Below are positions 26,771 to 55,792 of a stretch of DNA of 64,000 bases, in pieces. Origin of the DNA: Cymodocea nodosa (Eukaryota > Streptophyta > Magnoliopsida > Alismatales > Cymodoceaceae); contig JAZBRI010000003.1 in NCBI GenBank assembly GCA_036874045.1, positions 5,902,501 to 5,966,500 on the forward strand. The letters run 5' to 3'. The position numbers and the translations under genes were made by a program. The notes under the pieces were generated by a model, which ran no database searches, was not told where the DNA came from, and saw nothing but the letters and a program-made list of their open reading frames with translations. Every line of letters begins with the position of its first letter. Within the stretch, counting starts at the first letter, position 1.

Positions 26771-27391
26771 TGTTTAGAATGAAAAAGTGCATATTATTAA
26801 CGGTTAAATGATGGTTAATTGCATAATATTTATCTTATCATATAAGAATTAAGCCATTATGTTATAATTGCACTGTTATATACTTTAATTGAAGAATTTG
26901 CTATAATATTTTCCCAATGTTAACTAACATTAAAGAGCTTAATTGATGTTATTTACAATCTGTGGTATCGCCCAATGGTTGTCTGAATTCCTCTGTAAAT
27001 AGCAGTATTAAAAAGAAAAGATAGGCTCGTGGAGTTAACTTAAGTCCACGAGGTTAGTCCGTTGAGTTATCCATAACTCAACGAACTTAGTCCGTTGAGT
27101 TAGCTGTAATTCAACGGACAGCTTATTGAATATATAAATTTGATTTTTAACAAGCAAACAGTTCTCAAGTTCGTCAGCAATTCCCTATGGGATCGACCTA
27201 TACTTGCACACTGATACAATAGACACTATACACTTGCAGTTAAAGTACAAATTGGAATTAATATGTAAATTATATTAAAGGTTGTTTGTTTACTTCTAAA
27301 AGAAAGAATAGGCATAAAGATAAATTAACTAAGTAAAAACAGAAGTAACAAATCCAAGTTTTTCTAGTGTAGTGTTGGGAAAACCCAAACA
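26771..27391 (+). mobile_element. Athila-1 5' LTR with a 1.6-kb internal deletion
   Basis: The first 115 bases match the start of the 3' LTR and the last 480 match its end. Sequence equivalent to about 40488-42113 is missing and replaced by the short filler ATAATATTTT. The lost part contains the TATA box and all U3 modules. The differences from the 3' LTR in the retained part are few and mostly G/A changes. Confidence 0.92.
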
Positions 27392-27398: not shown

Positions 27399-27417
27399 TG
27401 GCGACGTTGCTGGGGAA
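27399..27417 (+). other. Athila-1 primer-binding site (tRNA-Asp type)
   Basis: TGGCGACGTTGCTGGGGAA differs at two positions from the Athila-2 copy, which reads TGGCGCCGTTGCCGGGGAA, the usual Athila PBS complementary to the 3' end of tRNA-Asp. It begins 7 bp after the LTR. Confidence 0.9.
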
Positions 27418-27469: not shown

Positions 27470-28700
27470 ATGTTTCGTTTTAATAGCCAGAGTTGTGTGT
27501 TTTCTTCTATAATTGAGAATATGGCATATGCTTATGCTCAAAGATTTCTGAAACCTGTAATTAGCATATGTGAATTCTGCAATTCTAAAGGACACGACAT
27601 TTCTGATTGTTTGAAATTGAGACATTTACAAATGGTTAGATCCCATGAACAACAAATGAATTATCCTCAATATAATAGAGCCAAGTATGAGAATCCTATA
27701 GTTTACCCAATTGATGGTCAGTATAGAATGTGTAATATGATGAGAGACACTAAAGTTTGGGATAGCTATGACAGACTGGAGCATAGTATAGAGCAAAATC
27801 TGGACAAACTGGAATACTTTATGTATCAACAACAAGAAGTCAACCAAGTAAACTATAAGGAAGCATATTCAGAACCTAAACAGGATATAATTTACGAAAC
27901 TGAAAAAACCATAATGAAAATTGATCAACAAGTGAATGCAATGAAATTAGATGATCTGGAAAGAAAATTAAAAGCATTAAACGAAAATGCAATGAAAATA
28001 CAAGTTATGCAATAGGAAAATGAAAATTATAATGTTATAAACCTGCATAATTTGCAAAATATACACCAAACAGAAAATACCAATGCAAGAGAATTTAAAG
28101 AATGCACTTTAAAATTAAAAATAATTGAAGATCATAATCACGAAAATGATATGCAAAAACATCATAAAAGTAACGAAAATCTGGAAGATGTATGTGTAAC
28201 ATTAAGATCTGAAACTGATATACCACCAAGAACTCAAAATGAAAATGATATGAAGGTGGATAAGAGTAAAAATCAAAATGATAATGAAAATGTAATAGTT
28301 AAAAATCTAGAAATCACTGAAGAACAATTTGAATCTGCGAATGAAGCTAAAAATGATCAAACAAATCAACTGAAAGAAAAAGAGTCTTTGAAATCAAAAT
28401 CTTTAGCACCCTATCCTGAAAGATTACAACAAACAATTCCTGAAAAACAAGAAAAAATCAGAGAAATTTTTGAAAAAGTACAAGTTAACATTCCTTTGTT
28501 AGATCTATTGCAGAAAATATCACCTTGTGCTAAATTTCTAAAGGATTGGTGTACTAAGAAAAGAGAGCGAAAAGTTCTTAGAAATTTCTTTTTAGATGAG
28601 CAAAGTAGTTCCCTATTTCTGCCACAAATTCCTAAAAAGTTATCTGATCCTAGAATCCCTGTTATATCATGCACCATAGGAAATACCATTTTAGAAAGAA
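27470..28700 (+). pseudogene. Athila-1 zinc-knuckle ORF (gag C-terminal type)
   Basis: The first ATG after the PBS (27470) opens a frame with MAYAYAQRFLKP and a CX2CX4HX4C zinc knuckle (CEFCNSKGHDISDC, residues 34-47). A Tyr/Asn-rich stretch, a heptad-rich coiled coil and a long acidic Asn/Glu/Lys linker follow, running into the protease. There is one in-frame TAG at 28013. No capsid domain precedes the knuckle, although in ordinary Athila elements it would. The capsid-type domain is instead found at 35974, downstream of integrase. Athila-2 has the same arrangement (55728-54931), with CEFCNSEGHAISDC. The expected role is RNA binding and particle assembly. How a knuckle-only Gag would assemble is unclear. 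Confidence 0.8.
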
Positions 28701-29322
28701 CATAAATAGACTTAGGTGCAGGTATAAATGTTATGCCAAGTGATATATTTGCATCCTTAGGATTAGAAGGCTTAACTCCTATTAGTACGGTTATTCAATT
28801 AGCTGATAGAGGTATAAGATACCCTAGAGGAAAAATAGAGGATGTCTTAATTAAAATCAAAAATTTTATATATCCTATTGATATTGTAATTTTGGATTCC
28901 CAACAAATTAAGCATAAAAATAGTGATACATCTTTAATTTTGGGAAGGCCATTTTTAGCAACATCAGGGGCTGTTATAAATTGTAAAACTGGAGTAATGA
29001 AGTTAGCATATGGTAATGAGGATAATCAATTAAATATTTTCAAACCAGAAAGGTTTGAGGAGTTAGAAATGTCCTTACATACCATAGAATTTTAGAGGAT
29101 GAAGGAGATATGTTAGATGATGTGATTCAAGAAGAATTAAATAGGCAAATCAATTCTGAAATTTTAAAAGAAAGTGAAAGCATAAATATAGAAGGAGATC
29201 GGGAAGAAACTAATTTAAAAAATGATGATGTTCAATTAGGAGCTCTAGCTTCTTATGGGCAGCATTTAGAATTAAAACATTTACCTCCTGAATTAACTTA
29301 TATATTTCTGGAAGATAAATGA
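28520..29322 (+). pseudogene. Athila-1 aspartic protease and linker
   Basis: After a conserved lead-in (LPQIPKKLSDPRIPVISCTIG) comes the active site IDLGAGINVMPSDIF, then GLEGLTPISTVIQLADR, DIVILDS and LILGRPFLATSGAVINC. This is the Athila-type retropepsin, in which DLGAG takes the place of DTGA. It cleaves the polyprotein during particle maturation. A TAA lies just before the active site (28703), and a frameshift near 29093 separates the acidic linker (29110-29322) that leads into RT. Athila-2 lacks the stop before DLGAG. The gene is contiguous with the zinc-knuckle ORF upstream in one frame. Confidence 0.9.
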
Positions 29323-30175
29323 ACCTGTCCAATCATTATTGCTTCAGATTTAAAAGAGGATCAAATAGCTAAATTAAAAGATGTAGTAAAAAGTTATAAA
29401 GAAGCAATAGGATGGACTATGACTGATATAAAAGGGTTAAGTTCAACTTTATGCTGTCACCACATATATTTAGAAGAGAATGTTAAACCTGTTAGAATTC
29501 CTAAGAGGAGATTAAATCTAAACCTTAAAGAAGTAGTCCGGAAGGAAATAGCTAAATGGTTAGATAATGATATAATTTATCTGATTTCTGATTGCTCGTG
29601 GGTTAGTCCAATCCATGTAGTCCCCAAGAAATTAGGATTAACAGTTATTAGGAATGAAAGTCAAGACTTGATACCTACTAGAATTCAATCAAGCTGGAGA
29701 GTATGTATAGACTATAGAAAGTTGAATGTTGTGACTAGGAAAGATCATTTTCCCTTACCTTTTATAGATCAAATGCTGGAAAGATTAGCAAGGTAAGAAT
29801 ATTTTTGTTTCCTAAACGGGTATTCAGGGTATAATCAAATTCCAGTAGCATTAAAGGATCAAGAGAAAACAACTTTCACCTGTCCTAATGGAACTTATGC
29901 TTTTAAAAGAATGCCATTCGGATTATGTAATGCACCAGCTACCTTTCAAAGGTGTGTGGAGGGCATATTTACTAGAATGACTGAAGATTTTTTAGAAATA
30001 TTTATGGATGATTTTACTGTATATGGCAACTCATATGAAGTGTGTTTAAGCAATTTAGACCAAATATTAAAACGCTGTGTGGAAAAAAATCTGATTTTAA
30101 ATTGGAAAAAATGTCACTTCATGGTTAAACAAGGAATAGTCTTAGGGCATGTTGTTTCTAAAAAAGGGTTGAAGT
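29323..30175 (+). pseudogene. Athila-1 reverse transcriptase
   Basis: Recognisable RT blocks in order are [49 protein letters not shown] and the catalytic [11 protein letters not shown] (about 29995-30027). [19 protein letters not shown] follows. The MDD variant of YxDD is usual in the Athila lineage. RT copies element RNA into cDNA inside the particle. Stops occur near 29320 and 29795 (LAR*EYFCFL), and the frame shifts at about 30175. Compared with Athila-2, the core motifs around the active site are better kept here but the frame is more broken. Confidence 0.93.
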
Positions 30176-30866
30176 AGATAAAGCTAAAACAGAAGTAATA
30201 TCTAATCTACCAAAACCTAAATCAGTAAAAGATATTAGATCATTTCTAGCACATGCTGGTTTTTATAGAAGATTTATTAAAGACTTTAGCAAGATAGCTA
30301 GACCTTTAACTAGTCTATTGAAAGATGTTCTATTTAACTTTGAAAAAAATTGCAAGGAAGCAATTTTCAGACTTAAGATTAGCTTAATTTTAACTCCTAT
30401 AATTCAAGCACCTGATTGGAACCATCCATTTGAGTTAATGTGCGATGCTTCTGATTTTGCTGTAGGAGCAGTTTTAGGATAGAAGATAGAAAAATCTCTT
30501 AGAGTGATTCATTATGCAAGAAAAACCTTAAATGATGCTCAAGTTAATTACACAACTACTGAAAAGGAATTATTAACTATTGTGTTTGCTTTAGAAAAGT
30601 TTAGATCATATCTGATTGGAGCTAAAGTAATAGTATACACGGATCATTCAGCTCTAAAACATCTAATAAAGAAAAAAGAAACTAAACCTAGATTGATCCG
30701 ATGGATATTATTATTGCAAGAATTTGATCTAGAAATTAAAGATAAAAAAGGTTGTGAGAATGTAGTAGCAGATCATTTATCAATATTACAAATAGAAAAA
30801 TCAAATATTGAAATTAAGGATAATTTTCCTAATGAACAATTAATGACCATCAACACAATGCCTTGA
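30176..30866 (+). pseudogene. Athila-1 RNase H and RT connection
   Basis: The frame continues with the connection [20 protein letters not shown] and enters RNase H with [14 protein letters not shown] (first Asp), [20 protein letters not shown] (Glu) and [14 protein letters not shown] (Asp). It ends with ENVVADHLS. All acidic residues of the active site are visible. A stop (GAVLG*KIE, about 30480) and a frame change at about 30860 inactivate it. RNase H degrades the RNA template during reverse transcription. Confidence 0.92.
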
Positions 30867-32163
30867 ATGCAGACATAGTTAATTACTTAGTTACTGTTTT
30901 AACACCTAAGGATTGGAATAGACAGGATAAGAAATTATTTTTCTCAAGAGTAAAATATTACTATTGGGAAGACCCATACTTATTTAAGAAATGTCCTGAT
31001 CTGGTTTTAAGGAGGTGTGTTCCAGAAACTGAATATTCGAGCATATTGTCTTTCTGTCATGACCAAGCTTGTGGAGGGCATTTTGGTTCAGGGAAAACTG
31101 CTACAAAAATTCTACAATGTGGGTTTTATTGGCCAACACTATTCAAAGATGCTCATAAATATTGCTTAAGGTGTTTAAGATGTCAACAAATAGGAAGAAT
31201 ATCAAAGAGGAATATATGCCTCTTAATCCTATTGTTGAGGTTGAAATCTTTGATGTGTGGGGAATAGATTTTATGGGTCCATTTCCTATGTCTAATCAAT
31301 TTAATTACATATTGTTGGGGGTGGATTATGTATCAAAATGGATAGAAGTTATTCCTACAAAAACTAATGACAACAAAGTGGTAATTCAATTTATAAGAAC
31401 AAATATATTTGCCAGATTTGGAATACCTAAAGCTATTATCAGTGATAGAGGAACTCATTTCTGTAATAGAAGTTTTGAAACCTTAATGAAAAAATATGGA
31501 GTAAACCACAAAATTGCAGCATCATATCATCCGCAAACAAGTGGACAAGTAGAAAGTGCAAACAAACAGATTAAATTAATCTTGGAAAAAGTAGTAAATC
31601 CTACTAGAACAGATTAGGCTAATAGATTAATAGATGCACTTTGGGCTTATAGAACTGCTTATAAAACAAGCTTAGGTATGTCACCTTTTAGGCTAGTATA
31701 TGAAAAAAGTTGTCATTTACCTATTGAAATAGAACATAAAGCTTATTGGGCATTAAAAACTCTGAACACTAATTTAAATCAAGCTGTTGAAAGTAGAAAA
31801 ATGTAATTAATTGAATTAGAAGAATTTAGAAATGAAGTTTATTCGAAGACTGTAAGAGAAAAAGAAAAAATTAAATTTTGGCATGATAGAAAAATTATTC
31901 CAAAAAGCTTTGAAATAGGACAAGAAGTATATCTTTATATGGCTAGACTCCATAACCATCTAGGAAAATTGAAATCTAGATGGGTAAGGCCTTACATAGT
32001 TCGAAATGTTTATCCTTATGGAGCTATTGAAATTGAAAATCCTAAAAATCAGAATATATTTAAAGTAAATGGACAAAGACTTAAACCTATTCTGAAAACA
32101 CCAAAAAGCTCCTTTGGAATTATAGAAGAAGTCAGAGTACAGAACTATTCGAGCTTTACTTAG
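30867..32163 (+). pseudogene. Athila-1 integrase
   Basis: The N-terminal zinc-binding HHCC region is visible ([24 protein letters not shown]). The catalytic core follows: [12 protein letters not shown] (Asp 1), [15 protein letters not shown] (Asp 2) and [17 protein letters not shown] (Glu). The C-terminal part [26 protein letters not shown] and a short tail end at SFT. Integrase inserts the cDNA and produces the 5-bp TSD seen here (TGTAT). There are frame changes near 31200 and stops at 31617 and 31804. No chromodomain is present, as expected for Athila. Confidence 0.93.
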
Positions 32164-32657: not shown

Positions 32658-32753
32658 CTAAAACCTAGGGTTTTGGGGGCATTATCCGGCAAATCATTTA
32701 GAATCTAGAATAGTAGAAATCAGAGTGATTCCGTGCTGTTGTGTAACTCCACA

Positions 32754-34960
32754 ATGAGGAAGATGATGCCTGAATTCTGGGAAGAGGCAGTGGACACCGC
32801 ACAGTTTCTGAAGGAATCTGAAGAATGGCACACGAGGCAGAAGATCAGAAATACAACGAGAGAAAAAGAGTTACAAAAGGTAGAATCTGAACTTTTTAGA
32901 TTAAGAAAAATATTAGTAGATTGTGGTAAACAAATACCCCATATAATGGAGACACGAATCAGAGTAGCAACTAAAATTGCAGTTAGCAAAGAAAGAAAAA
33001 TCTGGCCAAACAATGAAGTAGCCCTAGAGCTAATTCAACGTAAAGCCAGATTGTGGTTTAAGAAACACAGTGCTGGTCGAGGAAGTTGGGAAATATGGCG
33101 GCAGGAACAACAAGAGGCAACTAAAGAACAGAAGTAGTCGACCACTGAAAGACTTGTTCCTGAGGAACAGCAGCCAGGACCTTCAGTTCCACCATTTAAG
33201 CTGTTGGCACGAGCAGAAATGATAGGGCCTTCGATTGAAGAAGAGAAAAGAGAATTTGCAGAACTAGTTCAAGTTGGGAAGAACCAAGGAGAATCAGAAG
33301 ATTTGGTAGTGGCCAAACCACACCTAGTGTTTGATGCACTTTACAAAAAGAGGGCTGTAGAAAAGTTGAAAGCCCAATATAAAATCAAAGTGGAAATGCA
33401 TCACGCAGTTACTGTTAGAACTACTGCCAAACCTACTGCAAAAGGAGATGAAGCTAGTCCTTCGAGACTAGTAGTTATAAAAAAAGTTAAACAGTAAGAG
33501 CTAGTACTTGTGGCTCGAAGGCCTGTAGAGCCTATTTTTGTAGATTTAATTTCAGAAGATGAAGAGGAAGAACAGGCACAACTAATCAAAAAAAAGAAAG
33601 GAAAACAAAAAGTGCCTGAATATAAGGAAATTAAATCTGAAGTACCAATTTTTACAAGGCCTGTGGAGCAGATTTTTATTAACCTGCTATTCGAATCTGA
33701 GGAGGAGTAGGAGGAGCAAAGAAAAAAAAAAAATCAGGCTGAAATTAGTTTGCAGCCTGTACAAGAAGAAATAGAAATTAGGGTAGAAACTGAATTGCCC
33801 GTGACTCCATCCCAATCTATTACAGAATCAGAAAGAACAGTAACAGAACAGATTGGTAGTTAGGAGGAAAAAGAAAGAGCAGAAAATGAAGAGGCTAAAA
33901 GAAGCCATTTGGACAAAAATAATTTCACAGATTCCACTGAAGAACAAGAAACTCTTCAGCAATTTATGGAGAGAATTCAACACAAAGTGGAGAGTTCTGC
34001 CGGCTCACCACCACAAACAGAAATAGAAATTTAGGAATCTGTAGAAAACATTCAAATGAAGCCTATAGAAGAGGAAGAGCAAGAGTAAACCCCTCTGGAG
34101 CAACAAAGTCACCTTCCTAACTCGACTGAAACAACAATTTTGAATGAAGTACATTTTTGTAGTCAGGAAGCTTATACCAAATATCAAGAAATAAGGGGTT
34201 ACAACATTATTTACAGTAGACTAGTAAATTGTGATGGAATGCAAGAAATCAAAGAATTATTTGAATTCCAATGTCTACTGCAATTTATATCTCAAGAAAG
34301 AGGGCATGCAGTATATGAGAATTTAGTGCCCTATTTCTATGCAAATTTGAGAGAAAGAGAAGGAGGATTAATTTCAAACGTGGAGGAAGCTGATGTACAG
34401 ATAACACCAAAGCTTCTCCACAACATTTTTGGTTTAAAGAATGAAGGAACAAAAATTTTGGAAGATACAACTATAGTTGAATGGACTGAACAGCAAGTTA
34501 AGGATTGTTTAGCTATCAATCCTAGTGTGCCATTATTAAACAGATTGAAGCATTTAAATGGTAAAGCATACATGGTAGCTAACATTCTGATTAAGAATCT
34601 CTATCAACGATAGGGCCATGACATAGAATTAAGTCAATTTGTCAAATGGGCCACATATGCAGTTGTAAATAAGATCCAAATAAATTGGTTTGTAGTTTTT
34701 ATCTCCAAGCTGAAAACAGTGAAGAAGAAATTATTTTATGGAGATTTGATTCCACTGCTGATGGTGAACTGTATCGATTTCACTAAATGGACATGAAAAA
34801 GGATCAGATCAAGAACCATTTCAGTGAAAGAATATAGAAATTAGAACTAGCTGTACCTTTTGGAGGGATTACAAGAGCAATAGAGAGGATTAATCAATTA
34901 GAGCTTCAATTAGAAAAACTCCAGAAGGAAGTAGATGAACTTAGGCATAGAGATTAAATT
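32754..34960 (+). pseudogene. Athila-1 accessory ORF (env position), about 730 codons with in-frame stops
   Basis: From the ATG at 32754 one frame runs to about 34800, interrupted by stops near 33135, 33495, 33708, 33861, 34032, 34086 and 34611 but with no frameshift until the last part. The N-terminal third is helical and charged (EKELQKVESELFRLRKIL). The middle is a Glu/Lys/Gln-rich acidic linker containing repeats of RPVEPIFVDLISEDE type. The C-terminal third has HFCSQEAYTKYQEIRGYNII, PYFYANLRE and IFGLKNEGTKIL, resembling the plant retrotransposon-associated domain catalogued as putative plant transposon protein. NKIQINWFVVFISKL is shared with the copia accessory ORF. It ends in a short coiled coil (QLEKLQKEVDELRHRD). 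No membrane helix is seen. Deleted in Athila-2 except its last codons. Confidence 0.7.
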
Positions 34961-35663
34961 GTGTTGTTCGTCTACTTGTGTAAAATTGTATGAAATTGTA
35001 TGATGTACTTTTAATGTAATTGATTCATATTAATGAATGTAAATTTTTAAGATGCAATTTTCATACGTGTTTTGGATGTGAAATGAATGAAATTTATTGA
35101 ATATTATGTTATTGTGAAACTTTATGAATGAATATGTAACAGATTTACAATTTGCTGAATGACAGGATAACTACTTAAAAATTTATGCATGTTATAAGGT
35201 AAAATGTAAATTCTGCATAACATAAAATGACCTGCAAGTTAAATCTTTATATAATGCTCAGATTTAAACGTATTTTAATTAGAATGATGCATTAATGACA
35301 TGGATTTAACTTTATTACAGTTAGCAGAATAAAAAAATAAAAAAAAAAGAACAGAGAGGAACTTACGAGAGTAAAACTTAGATGTTGTTAAGTGTTAACT
35401 CAACGAAGTAAGACCGTTGAGTTAACTGTAACTCCACGAGTTCAATAATATAATATAAAGTCACTCCGTTGAGTTATCTGTAACTCAACGAAGTTAGTCC
35501 GTGGAGTTAGCAACAGTAACCGACTGTATACAGTTGAGTTTTCTGTAACTTAATGAGGTTAGTTCGTGGATTAAGCAGAACGGTTATTCTTTTAACCACG
35601 AACGAAACTTTGTTGGTTTAGCGGTTACCAAAATTTGAAATTAGTAGTGGTACACGTACCCAT
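34961..35663. other. Spacer with strong hairpin words before the displaced gag
   Basis: The first 430 bp are AT-rich with no ORF. Between 35397 and 35640, words such as AACTCAACGAAGTAAGACCG, GTTGAGTTAACTGTAACTCC and GTTGAGTTATCTGTAACTC alternate and can form stacked hairpins. Athila-2 keeps this region (about 49960-50600). Confidence 0.6.
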
Positions 35664-35671: not shown

Positions 35672-35973
35672 GAACCACGATGCATGTTGCAAGCCACGTT
35701 CTTGCAACGAGATTTATTCACTTTATGGATGCACAGTATATATATAAAACAGAATATTATTTACGAGTTACCAGCACTTTTAAAAGAAAGGAGAATGCTT
35801 TGGAGGAACTCGAAGGAGAAGCAGCTGATTCAACTTCATCCGACAACAAATATTTATAGAATGGAAAGCTTCAAACTAGTATGTAATTAATCTTCTGCTA
35901 TTTATTTATGAGCACATGGACTCATTCTCTAAGCACTAAACGATTAGTAAGAACACATACCTAGGAATTTTCA

Positions 35974-37247
35974 TTGCAAAGGAGTACTGAAAAATTTTCT
36001 GAACTGAACTTTAACGAAATTCTTTGGGGTGTAGTTAACCTTTCTTTTAAAGAGAACGTAGAGATGGCTGCTCCAATAGAAAAACCATTAGGAGAGATTC
36101 TGTATCCTGAATTAATTGATGAACCTTCATGTATTCGATTGCCAAACTTTGAGGGAGATAGGTTTGAACTGAAATCTAATTGTATTAGTCAATTACCACA
36201 TTTTCATGGATTAGAAAGAGAGGATGCCTATTATTTCCTTAGAGAATTTAACGAAGTTTGTCAAATGTTGAAAATGTCGAACATGAGTATAGATGCTATT
36301 AAACTTAGATATATCCCTTTTTCTTTAAAAGACAGCTAAGAGATGGTTATATACTCTATCGCATGATTCAATTCTACATGGACTTAATTTTGCTCTGTTT
36401 TTTTGGAAAAATATTATCCAACACATCAAACGATTAAAAAGAAGAAAGAAATATTAATGTGTAGCCAAAAATAGGGTGAATCATTCTAGAAATATTTTGA
36501 AAGATTTAAAGATTTACTGACTCAATGTCCACATCATGCAATGAGTAGAGCACAATTAATAGGTATAATTTATGAAGGCATAGATGTTTCAATGAAATCT
36601 TTATTAGAATCTACTTGTTAAAATGGATTTTTAAAATTATGTAGTGAAGAAGCATGGGCATATTTAGAGAATTTTGCAAAAAGAACTGCACAGTGGGAAA
36701 ATTCGGCTAAAGCTATTGTAAATAAAAGAATATTGCCAAGAGGAATGCATGAAATAGATTCCAATACTATGCTTGAGGTGAAATTAAATGAATTAACAAA
36801 GAAAATAGAAGAGTTATCATTAAATCAAAAGCTAGCAGAAAAGAATGCAAACATAAATGACTTAGATATTATTTATGCTAGAAACTAGAGAGATAACTTG
36901 GGAAATTCTTATCATCCTAATTGGAGAAATCACCCGAATTTATCTTGGAGAAACAACAATTTCCAGGGAGGAGAAAATATAAATGAGAAGAACATAAGTT
37001 ATGAAGTATTAATTGAACAAGGAGCTAGAATAGAGAAATTAGAAAAGATAATCCAACAAGTAAACAATCGTCTAGAATTTATATTTGGAAATGCTGCAAT
37101 TCAAAATCAGAATAGAAATATATCACTTAGATAGAAGGAACCAATGGAAGTTAGACCTATTGGAGGATTGCCAATACAAGCTATACCTAATCCTATCAAT
37201 AGAATGGTTAATGAAATTGATACCTCTTCTAGGAGGGCAGTTGAATG
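35974..37247 (+). pseudogene. Retrotransposon gag (capsid) ORF located downstream of pol in Athila-1
   Basis: The likely start is the ATG at 36064. The translation shows the gag signature of Athila-type elements in order: IRLPNFEGDRFELKSNCI, LPHFHGLEREDAYYFLREF, AIKLRYIPFSLKDS then, after a frame change, KRWLYTLSHDS, RFKDLLTQCPHHAMSRAQL and EEAWAYLENFAKRTAQWE. A coiled coil follows, then NSYHPNWRNHPNLSW (36898 on) and a second coiled coil. This is the particle-forming capsid protein. No zinc knuckle is present between these parts; the element's knuckle is at its 5' end. Several stops and at least one frameshift break the frame. It is deleted in Athila-2. Placement after integrase and an accessory ORF is the reverse of normal gypsy order. 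Confidence 0.85.
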
Positions 37248-37430
37248 AAGCAGCATATCTGAAGCAACTATCTGTATGTATATATATTTTTTTTTATATA
37301 TATGTTTTTTTTATTTTATTTATAGTATCGTAGAGTTAATTTTTAACTCAACGAACTTAGTCCATTGAGTTATGCCTTAACTCCACGAGGGTGTGCAGTA
37401 GTATGTTAATTTTTGCCTCTGCTAAATTTT

Positions 37431-37446
37431 TGTTTGTGTTTTACAG
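37431..37446 (+). promoter_or_regulatory. Candidate 3' splice site just before the F-box ATG
   Basis: TTGTTTGTGTTTTACAG is a pyrimidine-rich plant-type acceptor ending 9 bp before the ATG at 37456. It suggests that the F-box gene is expressed from a spliced transcript or kept the acceptor of a captured host gene. Confidence 0.5.
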
Positions 37447-37455
37447 AATCAACAA

Positions 37456-38594
37456 ATGGAATTGATGCAATTACCGTTGGATGCACTAAGGGAAGTACTA
37501 AGTAACTTGTCAGCTAAAGATTTGTGCAGGCTGTGTTGTGTATCAAAGGAAATTAAAGACTGTATTGAAGAAAACTATTTTCAGAGACTACAAGCTGCAA
37601 AAATGACTAAGATTAGAGATAGATTCATATGGAGGTCATTTAATCGTAGTTCAAATACCCATGAATATCTGGCTATGGAAGAAACTACTGGAATTCCACC
37701 CAATGCATTAGAAGGAATAAATCATATTATGGAGATAGATGAAGGATTAATCATATACAAGACGAGACCAAGGTATGCAAGTTTATTATTACCTGATATT
37801 TTGATAAGACATCCTACAATAGGAGAAGAATGGAATATAGGAAGACCTAATAGATTTGAAGCACCAACTGTAAATTGTGGGTCAGCTTTAATATTTTATA
37901 ATAAAAATTCTGCAATTCCTGAAAAATTATATTATTGGAGACCTACAGGAAATTGGGGTGAAGATTTATGCTTAAGTGTGTATAATTTTCTGAACAGATC
38001 TTGGAATGAAAATATTATGATATATCTAGGACAGAAATCATTAATTAACCAAACACATGTCATACTTGATGGATATATATATCTAGTCACTGAGATATCA
38101 TTAGCATATGGATCTGATTTATACATAGTGAGCATAGACAGTTATAATGAATATATAGAATTTTACCTATACCAAGTGAAATAGCTAAACCACCATCTGC
38201 AGAATTTAATGAAATTCAAATAGGAATGTGGTATAATGAAGAAGATGATCCTACTTTATGTCTGATAAGATGGTGGGATGAACTGATGAAATTTCAAATA
38301 TGGATTATGGAAGACATAAATGAATGGAAGTGGGAAGAGGAGTATATTGAAATAGATGTAGAAATAGAAACTGCTACATTACCTTGGAACCAAAAAGGAT
38401 CCCTTTCTGCATTACATATCATTAATGGTAATACACTCGTATTTGGAATTTATTATATATTACATGTTTACAAATTAAGAAGGAACAAGAACTGCATTAA
38501 AACAGAATTAATAGCAAGAAGAACTATGCCTAAAAAGTTTGCTTAGACTGATACATTTATTCCATTTGTTTCTACTTTTCAATCATGTTCTTAA
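37456..38594 (+). pseudogene. F-box protein gene carried by Athila-1
   Basis: The ATG at 37456 is followed by LPLDALREVLSNLSAKDLCR and LCCVSKEIKDCIEENYF, a clear F-box (residues 5-45), which binds SKP1 in SCF ubiquitin ligases. The remaining 330 or so residues are Trp/Tyr-rich beta-type sequence with repeated blocks (LYYWRPTGNWGEDLCLSVYN, LIRWWDELMKFQIWIMED, GSLSALHIINGNTLVFGIY), as in the substrate-binding half of plant F-box/FBA or kelch-like proteins. One missing base near 38155 shifts the frame and a TAG at 38544 shortens it. Both defects are absent from the surviving C-terminal part in Athila-2. It lies between the displaced gag and the 3' block, in sense orientation. Substrate unknown. 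Host origin is inferred. Confidence 0.85.
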
Positions 38595-40334: not shown

Positions 40335-40352
40335 ATTTAGGTATGGGGGAAG
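40335..40352 (+). other. Athila-1 polypurine tract at the 3' LTR
   Basis: TTTAGGTATGGGGGAAG immediately precedes the TGTTTAGA start of the 3' LTR. It is the expected primer site for plus-strand DNA synthesis. Identical in Athila-2. Confidence 0.9.
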
Positions 40353-42592
40353 TGTTTAGAATGAAAAAGTGCATATTCTTTACGGTTAAATGATGGTTAA
40401 TTGCATAATATTTAGCTTATCATATAAGAATTAAGCCATTATGTTATAATTGCACTGTTATATGCTTTAATTGAAGAATTTGCTTAATGTGGGGGAATTA
40501 ATGTTAATTTAGTACATTTATGAATTGTCGGTAAGTTGCAAGCTGTGAAATTCTTAAGTATCCGAATTTTCTGATATTTCGGACAGTTATGTTTAACATA
40601 CCAAACATATTCGGACAGTTATGTTTAACAGACCAAACGTGTATCGGATAGTTATGTTTAAATTGCCGAGCAGTTATGTTTTGAGAGAATATTTTATTAT
40701 TTCCTGAAGTACACATGTTGAAACCATAATGAATGACTTAAGTGAACTTTCGTTGAGTTATCTACAACTATCCGAAATTGCAGTTGGGCATCAGATAGTT
40801 ATTCCTATAACTCTTCAAAATCTCTTTTTATTTAGAAAATAGCTGAGGGCAAGTGTCATGTTCTAGGAAAGTGACTTAAGTGGATTTTCGGTGAGTTAGC
40901 TGTAATTATCCGAAATGCATCTGAACATCGGATAGTTAGACCTGTAACTCTCCGAAATGTTATTTTATAATTAAACTACGGCTGACACGTGTCGAGATCT
41001 GGTAAATTTACTTAAGTTATGCATCGGATAGTTAAGTTTATAAGTATCCGAAATGCACCTGAGCATTGGATAGTTAAATTTATGCACGTGTTGAATTTAA
41101 ATGCTTTAGAATATCACGTGAGATGTACATGTTTAACTCGTTAAGTTAGCATAACTATACGCGTTGAGTTACATGAATATTACACTAAGGTAACGTGTTA
41201 TGTTAGCAGCTTATTTCTTTATATTTTCTAATATGCCACTGTAGCGGTTGTAGAAATAGATAGTTGGAAGAGAAAAATCACGTTTGCACGTATCACGTAG
41301 GAATTCAATTGTGTAGGGAGAAGAAAGCATCGCCGTTGATATGAATGAAGGAAATCCAACCGACCATTCAAGCAGAAGCAGTTACTACTGAAGAAATATA
41401 AAAGAAAAGAAGAAAAAAAGAAGAGGGTGTGTGATCGATGGACGGACAGTGTGTGCAGAGGAGGATCGACGTCGCAATTCTCTGAAGTACCACACCAACC
41501 ATCATCATCACCATCACCACACCATAATAACCAACCATCGGAGGTCTGTGAGGATACTTACCTGATGTCGGGTCGATTCCGAGCCAAACACAGTGTCTGA
41601 CAACCACTATGAGGAGTGATCGCGTCACGGGAAGGGAAGTCATTTTCACCAAGCGCCGACTCATATTTCAGGAGATCGTAAAGCTTTTAGCATTAGCTTC
41701 GGGTTGATACCTATATGTTGAGGAGGAGATCATCTTGCAATTCTAGACTCGCGATTCTATAGGGAGAGGAGACAGAATTGTAAGTGGCTTAATTTTCAAT
41801 GGTGTAATTGCATTGCAAGTAGTGTCAGAAGTATTTACTGTCAAGTGAGATTACTTTACATTTCACCTATCGCCCATTTCCATGTTCATATTAAAACAAA
41901 AATACCAAAAACAATTTTTCTATGTTTGTATGTTGTATTTGAGTGTTGTATTGTTTGTGTTGTATCGTGATTAATGTTATCTTTGTCAGTGTTGTGATTG
42001 TTTTATGTTTATTTTAGTATTATAGTTTACTGAAATTGGTTCGTTCAAAAGACTTAAAGATTTTAATAGTTACTGTTTGAATTATCTGAATGTTAGTATT
42101 ACTCAATGATAAATCCAATGTTAACTAACATTAAAAAGCTTAATTGTTGTTATTTACAATCTGTGGAATCGCCCAATGGTTGTCCGAATTCCTCTGTAAA
42201 TAGCAGTATTAAAAAGAAAAGACAGGCTCGTGGAGTTAACTTAAGTCCACGAGGTTAGTCCGTTGAGTTATCCATAACTCAATGAACTTAGTCCGTTGAG
42301 TTAGCAGTAATTCAACGGAGAGCTTATTGAATATATAAATTTGATTTTTAACAAGCAAACAGTTCTCAAGTTCGTCAGCAATTCCCTATGGGATCGACCT
42401 GTACTTGCACACTGATACAATAGACACTGTGCACTTGCAGTTAAAGTACAAATTGGAATTAATATCTAAATTGTATTAAAGGTTGTTTGTTTACTTCTAA
42501 AAGAAAGAATAGGCATAAAGATAAATTAACTAAGTAAAAATAGAAGTAACAAATCCAAGTTTTTCTAGTGTAGTGTTGGGAAAACCCAAACA
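40353..42592 (+). mobile_element. Athila-1 3' LTR, full length (2240 bp)
   Basis: It begins with TGTTTAGAATG and ends with CCCAAACA, followed by the TSD TGTAT. U3 carries repeated ATCGGATAGTTA, CACGTGTC and CGTTAAGTTAG modules; the module at 41107-41215 is closely similar to 8745-8850 in the copia LTR. A TATA box (TATAAAAG, 41397-41404) lies near the middle. Downstream of it are a GC-richer leader and CTCCACGAG/CCGTTGAG hairpins. Confidence 0.95.
41368..41664 (-). other. Antisense open frame within the Athila LTR leader
   Basis: A frame beginning MSRRLVKMTSLP and containing VVRHCVWLGIDPTSGKYPHR is open antisense to the LTR. Versions occur at 43921-44118 (solo LTR), 46614-46799 and 56732-57034 (Athila-2 LTRs). 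In Athila-1 the codons near GIDPTSG overlap CAGGTAAGTAT, a perfect plant 5' splice donor, which is altered in the other copies. Coding value is uncertain. Confidence 0.3.
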
Positions 42593-45685: not shown

Positions 45686-47697
45686 TGTTTGGGTTTTCCC
45701 AACACTACACTAGAAAAACTTGGATTTGTTACTTCTATTTTTACTTAGTTAATTTATCTTTATGCCTATTCTTTTTTTTAGAAGTAAACAAACAACCTTT
45801 AATACAATTTAGATATTAATTCCAATTTGTACTTTAACTGCAAGTGCACAATGTCTATTGTATCAGTGTGCAAGTACAGGTCGATCCCATAGGGAATTGT
45901 TGACGAATTTAAGAAATGTTTGATTGTGAACAATTCAAATTTATATTCAATAAGCACTCTGTTGAGTTATAGTTAACTCAACGGACTAATTTCGTTGAGT
46001 TATGGCTAACTCAACGGACTATCCTCGTGGACTTAAGTTAACTCCACGAGCCTATCTCTTCTTTATAATACTGCTATTTACAAAGGAATTCGGTCAACCA
46101 TTGGGCGATTCCACAAATTGTAAATAACATCAATTAAACTTTTTAATGCTAGTTAACATTGGATTTATCATTAAGCAATACTAACATTCAGATGATTCAA
46201 ACAGTCACCAATAAAATCTTTAAATTTTTTTGTACGAACCAATTGCAGTAAACTGTAAAATTAAAACTAACATAAAATAATTATAAAACTGATACAGATA
46301 ACATTAACCACGATACAACACAAACAATACAACACTCAAATACAACATACAAACAAAGATAAATTGTTTTTGGTATTTTTGTTTTGATGTGAACATGGAA
46401 ATGGGCGAAAGGTGAAATGTAAAGTAATCTCACTTGATAGTAAATACTTCCGACACTACTTGCAACGCAATTACACCACTGAAAATTAAACCACTTACAA
46501 TTATGTCTCCTCTCCCTATAGAATCGCGAGTCCAGAATTGCAAGATGATCTCCTCTTCAGCATACAGGCATCAACCCGAAGCCAAGGCTAAAAGCTTTAC
46601 GATCTCTTGAAATATGAGTCGGCGCTTGGTGAAAATGTCTTCCCTTCCCGTGACGCAATCACTCCTCACAGTGGTTGTCAGGCACTGTGTTTGGCTCGGA
46701 ATCGACCCGACATCAGGCAAGTATCCTCACAGACCTCCGATGATTGGTGATTATGGTGGTGATAACAATGGTTGGTGTGATACTTCGGAGAATCGCTGAT
46801 ACTGTCTGCAGAAAGCTCGGTGCTCCTCCTCTGTATACACTGGTCGTCCATCGATCGCACCTTCTTTTTTTCTTTTTCTTTTTTTATATTTCTTCAGTAG
46901 TAACTGCTTTTGCTTGAATGATCGGTTGGATTTCCTTCCTTCAGATCAATGATGATGCTTCCTTCTCCATGCGCGATTGAATTCCTGTATGATACATGCA
47001 AACGTGGTTTTTCCTTTCAACTGTCTGTTCCTGCAACCGCTATAGTGGCATTTTAGAAAATAACTATAAAATACATGCAATAAAGAAATAAGCCGCTAAC
47101 CTAACGCGTTACCTTAGTGTATATTCATGTAATTCAACGCGTACAGTTATGCTAACTTAATGAGTTATAACTTAAGTAAATCTACCAGCTCTCGACACGT
47201 GTCAGCAGCAGTTTAAACATAAAATAATATTTCGGAGAGTTACAGGTATAACTATCCGATGCTTAGATGCATTTTCGGATAGTTACAACTAACTCATCGA
47301 AAATTCACTTAAGACATTCATTTTGGTTTTGACACGTGTACATCTGGAAATAATAAAATATTCTCTCTAAACATAACTGTTCGGCAATTTAAACATAACT
47401 ATCTAATACATAGTCGGTATGTTAAACATAACTGTCCGAATTTGTTCGGTATGTTAAACATAACTGTCTGAAATATCAGAAAATTCGAATACTTAAGAAT
47501 TTCACAGCCTGCAACTTACCGACAGTCCATAAATGTACTAAATTAACATTAATTCCCCAAAATTAAGCAGATTCTTCAATTAAAGCATATAACAGTGCAA
47601 TTATAACATAATGGCTTAATTCTCATATGATTAGCTAAATATTATGCAATTAACCATCATTTAACCGTTAATAATATGCACTTTTTCATTCTAAACA
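45686..47697 (-). mobile_element. Athila-2 3' LTR (2012 bp)
   Basis: Left edge TGTTTGGGTTTTCCCAACAC is the LTR end in reverse. Right edge TTCTAAACA is its start. Nearly identical to 55819-57799, so the insertion is comparatively young. Confidence 0.95.
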
Positions 47698-47716
47698 CTT
47701 CCCCCATACCTAAATT
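47698..47716 (-). other. Athila-2 polypurine tract
   Basis: Read on the minus strand as AATTTAGGTATGGGGGAAG directly before the 3' LTR, the same as in Athila-1. Confidence 0.9.
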
Positions 47717-47839
47717 TTGCTAGTCCCTTAGCAAACTGAGATCTAATTAATTGGTCTTTCAAAAGTGATAGAATTAATTCGTCCCCTTTTGTTTTTTTTC
47801 TTCTGTTTAGCATAAACATATATTCTATATGTTTCAGTA

Positions 47840-48660
47840 ATCAACCTGCAAAGATATTTAGAATATATGTAAATTACATACAAAGTATATCATCTTCATA
47901 TAGGTGTTAATTATATTATCATTTGTTCTTCTTTTCATCATCTGTAATCCTGAATTTTCCAATAAGATTTCTAGAAGAAATTTCAACAACATACGAATCA
48001 AAATACAATCTAATTCAATATGATTAAGACAAGCAAAATAAAGAATTGTATCTCCATTAAACAACATCAAAAGTCAATTCCAGATTCATATTTCAGCAAT
48101 TCTAGATAACAGAAAATATACTCGATTCATAAGATATCTGTATTTCACTAAACACTTGTATCTTTTCAGAACAGTATATGTTTTTTCCTTTTTTTCTTTT
48201 TTTTTCTTTTTTTGTGTACTTTAAAAGTTAATCATACAAGAGCTTTCTAATGTACCCATGTAACGAGCTTTCAGTCAACAATCCCATATCTGATCAAGAT
48301 CTTAGGTTGCCAGATTTTCAAAGTCCTTTTTCAGGTCAACAATCCTTACATACCTATCTGCTCAAGTACAAAAGGCTCGTGATCAAACAAGTCAATAAAC
48401 TCTCAAAATTTTCCTTTTTTTTTTCTTTTTTTTTTAAATACATACAAAACAAAACATTAATCACATACTACATGTGTACATATTTCATTAATACAGATGC
48501 AGTAAAACACCAATCTCATATAATCCTGCTTCTATCATTTACTAAAAATATGAATCCATAACAATAAGCTCATACTTTATCTATAGTTTAATAAGATCTA
48601 CACATAAATCATTCTACAAGTTCAATCAGTCAAAGTAAATGTATCTTTCATCATATGTGT
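47840..48660 (-). repeat. 3' shared block, Athila-2 copy
   Basis: Reverse complement of 39390-40210, with GGCTCGTGATCAAACAAGTC and CAAGAGCTTTCTAATGTACC. Poly(T)-rich insertions at about 48180-48220 and 48415-48435 distinguish it. Confidence 0.85.
48250..48561 (+). CDS. Conserved antisense ORF, Athila-2 copy
   Basis: Reads from the same ATG as the other three copies, with CNELSVNN, SDQDLRLPDF, GQQSLHTYLLKYKRLVIK and VNKLSK, then a frame extension to 103 codons that is unique to this copy. The shared 50-codon part is antisense to the element. Function unknown. Confidence 0.4.
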   Translation: MYPCNELSVNNPISDQDLRLPDFQSPFSGQQSLHTYLLKYKRLVIKQVNKLSKFSFFFSFFFKYIQNKTLITYYMCTYFINTDAVKHQSHIILLLSFTKNMNP

Positions 48661-49002
48661 TTCATTTAATCTAGAATTCACATCTCAGCTCCTTCAGAAC
48701 TTCAGATAATTTTCTGATTAAGCATTAAATATTCTGATTTCATTTTAAAATCATGAAACTGTTAAACTCATGAAATTCAGAAAAATCATAAGATACTATA
48801 TCTAGATTTACATAAATAATAAATTCTATAGCATCTTCTATAGCCTTCTAAATATAACATTCAAGCAGTTTATAAAAATTTTACAATCTCAATTATCGGA
48901 TAGTTACAGCAAGTTCATAAAAATTTTCAATTTCCTCAAAACTTTGCAGTACCATTTTAATTCCTTTAATTAACAAACTTACATGGCTGTTACTTTAATT
49001 AC

Positions 49003-49046
49003 CTCCCCCCCATACCTACATTTTGCATTGTCCTCAATGTAAAAGA
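49003..49046 (-). other. Athila-2 hairpin plus second purine tract
   Basis: On the minus strand TTACATTGAGGACAATGCAA is followed within a few bases by GTAGGTATGGGGGGGAGG. It is equivalent to 39001-39042 in Athila-1. Confidence 0.55.
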
Positions 49047-49456
49047 TTTGACAATAAGTACAGTAATTGTAGCAGGCATGAATAAAGTTTTGTTTGATTT
49101 AAAATTCAGGATAAGTAATTGGTTACATACATTGTTCCATTTGGATCTCTTTCTGCATATTCTGATTTTTGATTCTGAAAAACTTTTCATTCCTAGATAA
49201 ATACAGAATATAAAACAAAATAACATTTAACAGATATTAATAAATCAGTGTCTTGTGTGGAATGCAGGCTCCTATGCCTTTGGTGGCTCACAAGTAAGCC
49301 AGTTGGTTTCCCAAAACAGATACCAACAAACTGGATTGATATTTTGTTTTGTTTGTTTTTTTTTATAAAATGAACATGAAAAACTTCAAAATTCCTTCTT
49401 CTTTTTTTTCTAAAAATAAATGCAGAATACACACGTTAAACACACAAAATCATAGC

Positions 49457-49905
49457 TTAAGAATATGATTGAAAAGTAGAAACAAATGGAATAAATGTAT
49501 CAGTCCAAGCAAACTTTTTAGGCATAGTTCTTCTTGCTATTAATTCTGTTTTAATGCAGTTCTTGTTCCTTTTTAATTTGTAAACATGCAATATATTATA
49601 AATTCCAAATACGAGTGTATTACCATTAATGATATGTAATGCAGAAAGGGATCCTTTTTGGTTCCAGGGTAATGTAGCAGTTTCTATTTCTACATCTATT
49701 TCAATATACTCCTCTTCCCACTTCCATTCATTCATGTCTTCCATAATCCATATTTGAAATTTCATCAGTTCATCCCACCATCTTATCAGACATAAAGTAG
49801 GACCATCTTCTTCATTATACCACATTCCTATTTGAATTTCATTAAATTATGCAGATGGTGGTTTAGCTATTTCACTCGATATAGGTAAAATTTCTATATA
49901 ATTAT
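49457..49905 (-). pseudogene. F-box gene remnant, C-terminal part, in Athila-2
   Basis: The 122-codon frame from 49825 reads MWYNEEDGPTLCLIRWWDEL, GSLSALHIINGNTLVFGIY and RRTMPKKFAWTDTFIPFVS. It corresponds to the last third of the Athila-1 F-box protein with only a few substitutions, and is open to its natural stop. Upstream to about 49905 the homologous reading continues but has a TAA at the AEFNEI position. The F-box itself and the middle of the protein are deleted. Because the retained part lacks both the frameshift and the TAG seen in Athila-1, it shows that the F-box gene was longer in the common ancestor. Confidence 0.85.
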
Positions 49906-49924
49906 ATATAGGCAAATTTTGGTA

Positions 49925-51055
49925 ACTGCTAAATCGACGAAGTTTCATTTGTGGTTAAAAGAATAACCGCTCTGCTTAATCCATGAACTAACCTCGTTGA
50001 GTTACAGATTACTCAACAGAACACAGTCGGTTACTATTGCTAACTCCACGGACTAACTTCGTTGAGTTACAGATAACTCAACGGAGTGACCTTATATTAT
50101 ATTACTGACCTCGTGGAGTTACGGTTAACTCAACAGACTTACTTTGTTGAGTTAACACTTGGCAACTTCTAAGTTTCACTCTCGTAAGTTTTCTATTCTG
50201 TTCTTTTTTCTTTGTTTTTCATTCTGCTAACTGTAATAAAGTTAAATCTATGTCATTAATGCCTCATTTTGATTAAAATACATTTAAATTTGAACATTAT
50301 ATAAAGATTTAACTTGCAGGTCATTTTACATTATGCAGAATTTACATTTTACCTTATAACATGCAGAAATTTTTAAACAGTTATCCTGTCATTCAGCAAA
50401 TTGTAAATCTGTTACATATTCATAAAGTTCCACAAATTACATAATATTCAATAAATTCCATTCATTTCACATCCAAATACGTATGAAAATTGCATTTGAA
50501 AAATTATATTCATTAATATGCATCAATTACATTACAAGTACACCATACAATTTCATACAATTTTACACAAGTAGACGACCAATACAATTTAATCTCTATG
50601 CCTAAATTCATCTACTTCCTTCTGGAGTTTTTCTAATTTTAGGTCTTAGCTACAATACTCCGTTGAGTTATAGTTAACTCAACGGAATAAGCTCATTGAC
50701 TAACTCAAGACTTAACGGAGTACGCTCGTTGAGTTAAGCGTAACTTAACGGACTCCCCGTACAAGCAAATATAATAATAAAAATATTACAGAGAATAGTT
50801 TTTCTGGTTTTTTACCGATTTAACCGATACTATGCTTCGGTCAGACCTAAATATTTTTTTTATTTTTCTTTCTCTTAGACCGATACTATGTTTCGATAAA
50901 ACCAATATTTTTTTCTGAAAATTAATATACAATTTTTTTTAATGTTCCGGTCATATCGATGGATCTAGTCGGTTGAACCGCAACTATTTTTATGTTTTAT
51001 ATATATTTTTAATGTTTTTTTTTTTTAAACATATATATATAAACATAAAAACTGA
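49925..51055 (-). other. Athila-2 spacer with hairpin words and the first deletion junction
   Basis: Contains the equivalents of 34919-35640 (to about 50640) and 32221-32590 (50640-51055). The junction near 50640 joins GTAGCTAAGACCT to AGAAAAACTCCAGAAGG. CCGTTGAGTTA/TAACTCAACG pairs and CGGTTNAACCG words are conserved here despite the deletions. Confidence 0.75.
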
Positions 51056-52330
51056 TTTCTTACTAAGTAAAGCTCGAGTAGTCCTCTACTCTGACTTCTT
51101 CTATAATTCCAAAGGAGCTTTTTGGTGTTTTCAGAATAGGTTTAAGTCTTTGTCCATTTACTTTAAATATATTCTGATTTTTAGGATTTTCAATTTCAAT
51201 AGCTCCATAAGGATAAACATTTCAAACTATGTAAGGTCATGCCTATCTAGATCTTAATTTTCCTGGATGATTATGGAGTCTAGCCATATAAAGATATACT
51301 TCTTGTCCTATTTCAAAGCTTTTAGGAATAATTTTTCTATCATGCCAGAATTTAATTTTCTCTTTTTCTCTTACAGTCTTCGAATAAGCTTCATTTCTAA
51401 ATTCTTCTAATTCAATTAGTTGCATTTTCCTATTTTCAGTAGCTTGATTTAAATTAGTGTTCAGAGTTTTTAATGCCCAATAAGCTTTATGTTCTATTTC
51501 AGCAAGTAAATGACAACTTTTTCCATATACTAGCCTAAAAGGTGACATACCTAAGCTCGTTTTATAAGCAGTTCTATAAGCCCAAAGTGCATCTATCAAT
51601 CTATTAGCCCAATCTGTTCTAGTAGGATTTACTACTTTTTCCAAGATTAATTTAATTTGTTTGTTTGCGCTTTCTACTTGTCCACTTGTTTGCGGATGAT
51701 ATGATGTTGCAATTCTGTGGTTTACTCTATATTTCTTCATTAAGGCTTCAAAACTTCTATTGCAGAAATGAGTTCCTCTATCACTGATAATAGCTTTAGG
51801 TATTCCAAATCTGGCAAATATATTTGTTCTTATAAATTGAATTACCACTTTGTTCTCATTAGTTTTTGTAGGAATAGCTTCTGTCCATTTAGATACATAA
51901 TCCACCCCCAACAATATGTAATTAAATTGATTAGACATAGGAAATGGACCCATAAAATCTATTCCCCACACATCAAAGATTTCAACCTTAACAATAGGAT
52001 TAAGAGGCATCATATTCCTCTTTGATATTCTTCCTATTTGTTGACATCTTAAACAACTTAAGCAATATTTATGAGCATCTTTGAATAGTGTTGGCCAATA
52101 AAACCCACATTGCAGAATTTTTGCACCAGTTTTCCCTGAACTAAAATGTCCTCCACAAGCTTGGTCATGACAGAAAGACAATATGCTTGAATATTCAGTT
52201 TTTGGAACACACCTCCTTAAAACCATATCAGGACATTTCTTAAATAAGTAAGGGTATTCCCAATAGTAATATTTTACTCTTGAGAAAAACAATTTCTTAT
52301 CTTATCTATTCCAATCCTTAGGTGTTAAAC
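51056..52330 (-). CDS. Athila-2 integrase
   Basis: A 349-codon open frame (52292-51243) covers the zinc-binding region ([23 protein letters not shown]) and the DDE core: [27 protein letters not shown] and [17 protein letters not shown]. It also covers [20 protein letters not shown] and the C-terminal [20 protein letters not shown]. The last 60 codons, to about 51060, continue after a stop at 51243. All zinc ligands and catalytic acids are present. Integrase joins cDNA ends to target DNA with 5-bp spacing, consistent with the TATAT duplication. It is preceded by RNase H with a short frame break at about 52300. Confidence 0.92.
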
Positions 52331-52391
52331 CAGTAACTAAGTAATTAACTATGTCTGCATACCAAGGCATTGTGTTGATAGTCATTAATTG

Positions 52392-53810: not shown

Positions 53811-54760
53811 AGTCCATCATATTTCTTCTTTATAACTTTTTACTACATCTTTTAATTTAGCTATTTGATCCTCTTTTAAATCTGAAGCAATAATGATTGG
53901 ACAGGTTCGTTTATCTTCCAGAAATATATAGGTTAATTCAGGAGGTAAATGTTTTAATTCTAAATGCTGCCCATCAGAAGCTAGAGCTCCTAATTGAACA
54001 TCATCATTTTTTAAATTAATTTCTTCCTGATCTCCTTCTATATTTATGCTTTCACTTTCTTCTAAAGTTTCAGAATTGATTTGCCTATTTAATTCTTCTT
54101 GAATCACATCATCTAACATATCTCCTTCATCCTCTAAAAAGTTTATGGTATGTAAGGACATTTCTAACTCCTCAAACATTTCTAGTTTGAAAATATTTTA
54201 TTAAGTATCCTCATTACCATATGCTAACTTCATTACTCCAGTTTTACAATTTATAACAGCCCCTGATGTTGCTAAAAATGGCCTTCCCAAAATTAAAGAT
54301 GTATCACTATTTTTATGCTTAATTTGTTAGGAATCCAAAATTACAATATCAATAGGATATATATAATTCTTGATTTTAATTAAGACATCCTCTATTTTTC
54401 CTCTAGGGTATCTTATACTTCTATCAGCTAATTGAATAACCGTACTAGTAGGAGTTAAGCCTTCTAATCCTAAGGATGCAAATATATCACTTGGCATAAC
54501 ATTTATACCTGCACCTAAGTCTATTAAAGTTCTTTCTAAAATGGTATTTCCTATGGTGCATGATATAACAGGGATTCCAGGATCAGATAACTTTTTAGGA
54601 ATTTGTGGCAGAAATAGGGAACTACTTTGCTCAGCTAAAAAGATCTTTCTAAGAACTTTTCGCTCTCTTTTCTTAGTACACCAATCCTTCAAAAATTTAG
54701 CACAAGGTGGCATATTCTGCAAAAGATCTAACAAGGAATGTTAACTTGTACTTTCTCAAA
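53811..54760 (-). pseudogene. Athila-2 aspartic protease and linker
   Basis: 54734-54327 reads LPQIPKKLSDPGIPVISC, LIDLGAGINVMPSDIF and DIVILDS. After a stop, 54310-54190 continues with LILGRPFLATSGAVINC, and 54179-53817 is the acidic linker (LEDEGDMLDDVIQEEL). The DLGAG active site is uninterrupted here, unlike Athila-1. Stops near 54328 and 54200 break the polyprotein. Confidence 0.9.
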
Positions 54761-55728: not shown

Positions 55729-55792
55729 ACAACTCTAGCTATTAAAACGAAACAGCTCTAACAATTACTTATATTAATTCAATTCAATTCAA

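What the first reader, a model, noticed from the sequence alone, without database searches (positions are those of the whole stretch)
37456..38594. F-box gene carried as cargo by an Athila-type LTR retrotransposon family
A clear F-box with a beta-rich C-terminal half lies in sense orientation between the displaced gag and the 3' LTR of Athila-1. Athila-2, an independent insertion with its own TSD, keeps the C-terminal third at the same place. The cargo was therefore replicated with the element. An F-box protein could couple the element to SCF-dependent protein turnover, for example of a silencing factor. That role is speculation; the capture itself is directly supported.
Basis: partly seen in the sequence, partly recalled or inferred. 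Interest (0 to 1): 0.9.

Follow-up and report, generated by a model that had tools for sequence, protein, structure and literature searches.

The report
Spliced F-box gene in a retrotransposon
A plant jumping gene present in well over a thousand copies carries its own F-box gene, the kind of protein that marks other proteins for destruction, and old copies made from spliced RNA suggest that splicing decides whether its RNA can make the capsid protein or the F-box protein.

Summary
The F-box at 37456-38594 is a resident gene of one Athila-like Ty3/gypsy family: 108 of 108 scored places in the host genome match over (nearly) all 379 residues at 91-100% identity, 33 of them without an internal stop (hand count). 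Pattern counts give 1572 intron-bearing F-box starts and 200 spliced junctions. The main new point is splicing. In 6 of 20 long copies (5 separate insertions) exactly 35879-37446 is missing. This is a GT-AG intron, and it contains the whole gag capsid ORF. Two spliced copies checked are complete elements with target-site duplications, and the spliced copies are not one clade (AU p 1e-6). So unspliced RNA can encode gag, and spliced RNA loses gag and joins an upstream exon in frame to the F-box. F-box pN/pS (0.54) is like that of gag (0.51) and below a simple neutral simulation (mean 0.82), which suggests purifying selection. None of ten literature searches listed a report of an F-box gene in an LTR retrotransposon. 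What the protein degrades is unknown. A host silencing factor is my leading guess, and it is unproved. Donor gene, RNA and protein evidence are missing.

The parts
26771..27391 (+). 5' LTR of Athila-1, internally deleted; TSD TGTAT at 26766-26770
27399..27416 (+). primer binding site, 7 nt after the LTR; tRNA-Asp type (type recalled)
27470..32163 (+). pol region: CxxC..H..C knuckle-like start (by eye; Pfam E 0.22), then protease-, RT-, RNase H- and integrase-like sequence; broken by stops in this copy, domains scanned in Athila-2 and L051
32478..32569 (+). palindromic GTTGAGTTA/TAACTCAAC module upstream of ORF2; also in the LTR next to its TATA
32733..34957 (+). ORF2 in the env-like position, weakly Transposase_32-like (PF20167, below cut-off); broken by stops in this copy
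35396..35541 (+). second internal copy of the palindromic module, followed by TATAAA at 35663
35684..35878 (+). exon 1: open stretch in frame with the F-box after splicing; donor at 35878/35879
35879..37446 (+). GT-AG intron, precisely absent from spliced copies
36064..37248 (+). gag capsid ORF inside the intron (PF03732, 76 bits in copy L018); broken by stops in this copy
37328..37388 (+). third internal copy of the palindromic module, in the intron before the F-box exon
37447..38594 (+). exon 2: F-box gene, ATG at 37456; frameshifted near 38160 in this copy
40339..40352 (+). polypurine tract
40353..42592 (+). 3' LTR of Athila-1; TSD TGTAT at 42593-42597
49460..49900 (-). remnant of the same F-box gene (residues 233-379) in Athila-2
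45686..57799 (-). Athila-2, independent insertion with TSD ATATA and internal deletions

Best explanation
This is a multicopy Athila-like retrotransposon family that owns an F-box gene. SHOWN from genomic sequence: the order is LTR, PR-RT-RH-IN, ORF2, gag capsid, F-box, LTR. A GT-AG intron of about 1.57 kb holds the whole gag ORF. Spliced RNA was reverse transcribed and integrated, in all likelihood several times. INFERRED: unspliced RNA makes gag. Spliced RNA makes the F-box protein, read from its own ATG or with an in-frame N-terminal extension of up to about 68 residues. The protein joins SKP1-CUL1 through its F-box, and its FBA-like half chooses a target for ubiquitination. GUESSED: the target is a host factor that limits the element, most likely in RNA silencing.
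For: Copy number. Intron missing at the same bases in 6 of 20 long copies and in 6 of 39 fetched copies in all. 200 spliced junctions genome-wide against 0 for the reversed control, 2307 retained donors, 1572 retained acceptors. The two spliced elements whose ends were checked have both LTRs and TSDs CATTG and GCATA. The spliced copies are not one clade: AU p 1.1e-6, at least 3 changes forced. The join is in frame; two spliced copies have open frames of 432 (L009) and 447 (L023) codons. Gag identity: PF03732 76 bits. Constraint: pN/pS 0.54 (95% 0.40-0.77; 30 of 40 rows), gag 0.51, F-box in 12 of the gag copies 0.46, neutral simulation mean 0.82, minimum 0.58 of 60. Variants of the non-deamination kind are fewer in codons than in the 3' UTR.
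Against: No RNA or protein data. The exon-1 frame shows no codon signature: its third positions vary least. Gag shows no third-position excess in the same test, so per-position counts are weak. The bootstrap ranges of pN/pS overlap the range of the simulation. Most differences are private to one copy, as expected of neutral change after insertion, and only 33 of 108 listed copies lack an internal stop. FBA matches are below cut-offs, and the structure model failed at pLDDT 33. No homologue was found and no target is known.
Confidence: 0.6

Rival explanations
1. The F-box is a passenger with no benefit: it was caught once in the master element and amplified with it.
For: The star-like tree with long tips means that one burst could explain the copies sampled. 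Many copies are broken. The donor and any function are unknown.
Against: pN/pS equals that of gag and lies below the neutral simulation. Variants carried by two or more copies have a lower N to S ratio (104:48) than private ones (185:62) and than the neutral expectation of about 3.7.
Confidence: 0.25
2. The F-box protein acts on the element itself, for example by turning over gag or integrase, as copy control or as a timing switch tied to splicing.
For: Gag and F-box would be alternative products of one precursor.
Against: No direct evidence; self-limitation does not obviously favour an element with over 1,500 intron-bearing F-box starts.
Confidence: 0.15
3. The missing 35879-37446 is a recurrent DNA deletion or was spread by gene conversion, not splicing.
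For: Recombination among Athila elements is described in Arabidopsis (PMC2410132, passages seen). Conversion could spread one spliced copy.
Against: Breakpoints are the exact GT and AG boundaries in 6 of 6 such long copies. Five other internal deletion junctions looked at show no GT-AG at their mapped ends. Two spliced elements carry their own TSDs.
Confidence: 0.04

Closest known systems
Plant LTR retrotransposons with a sense additional ORF between pol and the 3' LTR (aORF-3S; review PMC7264820, part 1 of 3 read)
   Same: Sense ORF in that position in many copies; the review describes splicing for barley Bagy2.
   Different: The ORF encodes an F-box protein, not an env-like one, and gag lies in its intron.
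Orchid Gypsy elements with an AlkB m6A demethylase (PMC9289625, abstract and section 12 read)
   Same: A host-type regulatory domain fixed in a plant Gypsy family; that screen covered 121 angiosperm genomes.
   Different: Section 12 names no F-box among its extra domains, and the term does not occur in the text (count); no gag-containing intron is reported in the parts read.
Retrotransposon cytosine methyltransferases (PMC5890265, abstract and headings read)
   Same: DNA-methylation gene carried by retrotransposons.
   Different: Other enzyme, other hosts.
Polerovirus P0 F-box silencing suppressors (PMC6593998, start of abstract in a listing)
   Same: A plant parasite's F-box-like protein that interacts with SKP1; some P0 proteins target AGO1.
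   Different: P0 is a viral protein with an F-box-like motif; target and activity are unknown here.
Ty1/Copia shGAG in EVADE (PMC8892269, abstract and headings read)
   Same: Alternative RNA forms of a plant retrotransposon set which protein is made.
   Different: There a short RNA makes gag; here splicing removes gag.

Membership tests
LTR retrotransposon, Ty3/gypsy | LTRs with TG..CA ends, PBS, PPT and 5-bp TSD | tested here: met
LTR retrotransposon, Ty3/gypsy | Gag, protease, RT, RNase H and integrase domains | tested here: met
   PF03732, RVT_1, RT_RNaseH and rve above cut-off; protease below cut-off. Scanned in different copies of the family
LTR retrotransposon, Ty3/gypsy | zinc knuckle (NC) | tested here: inconclusive
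   motif by eye near 27575; Pfam E 0.22 in one copy, none in another
Athila lineage | RT phylogeny places it among Athila | not tested
   No RT tree was built; the assignment rests on gag resemblance, PF20167-like ORF2 and recall
Athila lineage | gag first, then pol | tested here: not met
   gag lies after pol and ORF2; 5' LTR followed by pol in 4 of 5 other copies, the fifth not reaching the end
aORF-3S elements | sense extra ORF between pol and the 3' LTR in many copies | tested here: met
F-box proteins | F-box domain above the curated cut-off | tested here: met
   PF00646, 34.4 bits against 20.5; 6 of 6 proteins match
F-box proteins | F-box-associated (FBA) C-terminal domain | tested here: inconclusive
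   TIGR01640 best E 9e-7 but below cut-off; FBA_1 best E 0.017
F-box proteins | binds SKP1 in an SCF ligase | not testable with these tools
   needs bench work
Viral F-box silencing suppressors | removes a silencing protein such as AGO1 | not testable with these tools
   needs bench work
Retroviral-type spliced downstream gene | downstream ORF made accessible by splicing out upstream coding sequence | tested here: met
   from genomic copies of spliced RNA; no RNA seen

The most novel reading that the evidence does not exclude
A plant retrotransposon encodes its own SCF substrate receptor to destroy a host silencing factor, and uses one retained-or-removed intron as a switch between making capsid (gag inside the intron) and making this counter-defence protein.
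Probability: 0.3. Interest if true: 0.93.

Novelty: new variant of a known kind. Interest (0 to 1): 0.8.

Why it matters
The function of most additional ORFs of plant LTR retrotransposons is unknown or debated. Here one is a recognisable F-box gene, so SKP1 binding and substrate can be tested directly. About 200 integrated spliced junctions record an RNA-processing choice in the genome. The arrangement, with gag inside the intron of another element gene, is one that I found in none of the papers or passages seen.

Tried and rejected
Separate insertion or gene conversion between two copies only: rejected by over 100 scored copies. A short intron from 37273, my first thought: not supported; spliced copies show the donor at 35878. 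Splice sites at other internal deletions (L012, L020, L026, and two in Athila-2): no GT-AG at the mapped ends. Structure prediction of the F-box protein: pLDDT 33, so no fold search was run. Solved structures: none by single sequence at E 1 or by profile at E 10. Homologous proteins: none at E 0.01 and 0.1; a gag query found 5, two of them named plants, so plant holdings can be hit but may be thin. Donor gene: not found, since the 108 places scored were element copies and the other first-look candidates (7019 in all) were not scored. A second group of Athila-like gag matches was read in one copy; no F-box lies in the 4 kb fetched. Rows dropped: L025 from the trees (no donor motif found); upstream parts of L026 and L020 trimmed; from the main pN/pS 10 of 40 rows (window copy, 8 frameshifted copies, duplicate L016), and stop codons were skipped in the rest. 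The 39 copies are the best matches to the window copy, not a random sample. LTR divergence (K 0.037, 0.054, 0.071) is mostly transitions, so ages are uncertain.

Full report
Both statements hold. Athila-1 has TSD TGTAT and Athila-2 has ATATA. The F-box is above the Pfam cut-off, and the second half resembles the F-box-associated domain below cut-off. The window copy is broken by a missing base and a late stop.

The gene belongs to the whole family. A DNA search gave 40 of 40 scored places full length at 94-100% identity, the window copy included, from 3860 first-look candidates. A protein search gave 108 of 108 scored places spanning residues 1-379 or within two residues of it, at 91-100% identity (the query's own place included), from 7019 candidates; by my hand count 33 have no internal stop. 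Of 39 copies fetched, 9 keep the full 379-codon frame. These copies are the best matches, not a random sample.

Anatomy. Four other elements whose 5' side was fetched run from the LTR directly into the pol region, colinear with the window and with no gag there; a fifth (L048) did not reach the 5' end. The gag capsid ORF (PF03732, 76 bits in L018) lies after pol and after ORF2. RT, RNase H and integrase are above Pfam cut-offs in family members; protease is below cut-off and the zinc knuckle is seen by eye only. In 6 of 20 long copies (L009, L013, L016, L017, L023, L028) the sequence jumps from window base 35878 to 37447. Nine of the 14 intron-bearing rows printed read CTTCAGACTG/GTATGT at the donor; the others differ by one or two bases, and one (L022) has lost the GT. 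Acceptors mostly read TTTTACAG/AATC. Spliced copies read CTTCAGACTG/AATC or a close variant. The removed piece is an intron with the whole gag ORF inside. L009 and L016 are one insertion duplicated with its flank (482 flank bases compared, 10 differences), so there are 5 separate spliced insertions, on five contigs.

Genome-wide, with up to 3 mismatches in 33 bases, there are 200 spliced junctions, 2307 retained donors and 1572 retained acceptors with the F-box start. The reversed control gave 0 each time. The two spliced copies whose ends I checked are proper integrations with TSDs CATTG (L050/L009) and GCATA (L051/L028). A tree of 20 rows over 4250 columns rejects a single spliced clade (AU p 1.1e-6), and starred branches force at least 3 changes. 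Template switching or conversion could add changes, and three changes may be one gain and two losses, so this is not a firm count of splicing events; either way spliced RNA was reverse transcribed.

After splicing the upstream exon is in frame with the F-box, giving open frames from ATG of 432 codons in L009 and 447 in L023. The extension has no codon signature, so it may be untranslated.

Selection. Over 30 of 40 rows, pN/pS of the F-box is 0.54 (0.40-0.77). Gag in 13 copies is 0.51 (0.37-0.78), and the F-box in 12 of those copies is 0.46 (0.33-0.71). A neutral simulation with the 3' UTR spectrum gives mean 0.82, sd 0.10, range 0.58-1.04 in 60 runs. The bootstrap ranges overlap that range, and the simulation uses a star tree and an arbitrary scale, so this supports constraint but does not measure it well. 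Variants carried by two or more of 40 rows have N:S 104:48, private ones 185:62; the neutral expectation is about 3.7 to 1. Non-deamination variants per site in 21 rows are 0.087, 0.071 and 0.124 at codon positions 1 to 3 and 0.222 in the 3' UTR, where misalignment may add some. Positions 1+2 against 3 differ at p 0.018. Against this, gag shows no third-position excess.

Regulation. A palindromic GTTGAGTTA/TAACTCAAC module lies just upstream of the LTR TATA at 42332, and again before ORF2, before exon 1 (with TATAAA at 35663) and in the intron before the F-box. There are 129 hits in the window, in these and in other repeats, against a mean of 14 in 20 mononucleotide shuffles (pairwise matches). 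Internal promoters are a plausible reading, untested.

Mechanism. I think unspliced RNA serves gag and spliced RNA serves the F-box protein, which would act as an SCF substrate receptor. Some plant viruses use F-box-like proteins as silencing suppressors (PMC6593998, PMC6784205; starts of abstracts in a listing), and a plant F-box protein, FBW2, regulates AGO1 (PMC2914764, same listing). That makes a silencing factor the leading guess, at about 0.3. Passenger status (0.25) and self-regulation (0.15) remain open.

Novelty. Ten searches of an open-access library listed no title or abstract start that reports an F-box gene inside an LTR retrotransposon; I did not read every listed paper. The nearest listed are F-box genes that took up a transposase domain (PMC12062965) and F-box retrogenes in Thlaspi (PMC8764390, passages), which are not element genes. 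The section read of a screen of 121 angiosperm genomes names no F-box (PMC9289625). Additional ORFs, spliced env-like ORFs and captured regulatory domains are known, so this is a new variant of a known kind: a new domain, and a new arrangement with gag in the intron. Subscription papers were not searched.

Noticed in passing
window 32478-32569, 35396-35541, 37328-37388, 42228-42318: A palindromic module (GTTGAGTTA/TAACTCAAC, about 33-bp spacing) recurs before ORF2, exon 1, the F-box exon and the LTR TATA; other LTR-related and repeat stretches in the window carry it too.
   Followed up: partly
window 32640-32690: TTATTTAAACTAAAACCTAGGGTTTT, a TATA-like and telo-box-like stretch (names recalled), just upstream of ORF2.
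   Followed up: no
window 42844-45067: A second, diverged LTR of the same kind (84% identical) follows the 3' LTR of Athila-1, apparently solo.
   Followed up: no
L054 (C11:10187850-10191849): A second group of Athila-like gag matches in the genome. The one copy read has an open frame of at least 444 codons with a zinc-knuckle-like motif (by eye) inside gag, and no F-box in the 4 kb read.
   Followed up: partly
L009 and L016 (C3, about 73 kb apart): Segmental duplication carrying the same spliced insertion and its flank.
   Followed up: yes
window 3033-5142: An older related LTR, about 72% identical to the Athila-1 LTR.
   Followed up: no
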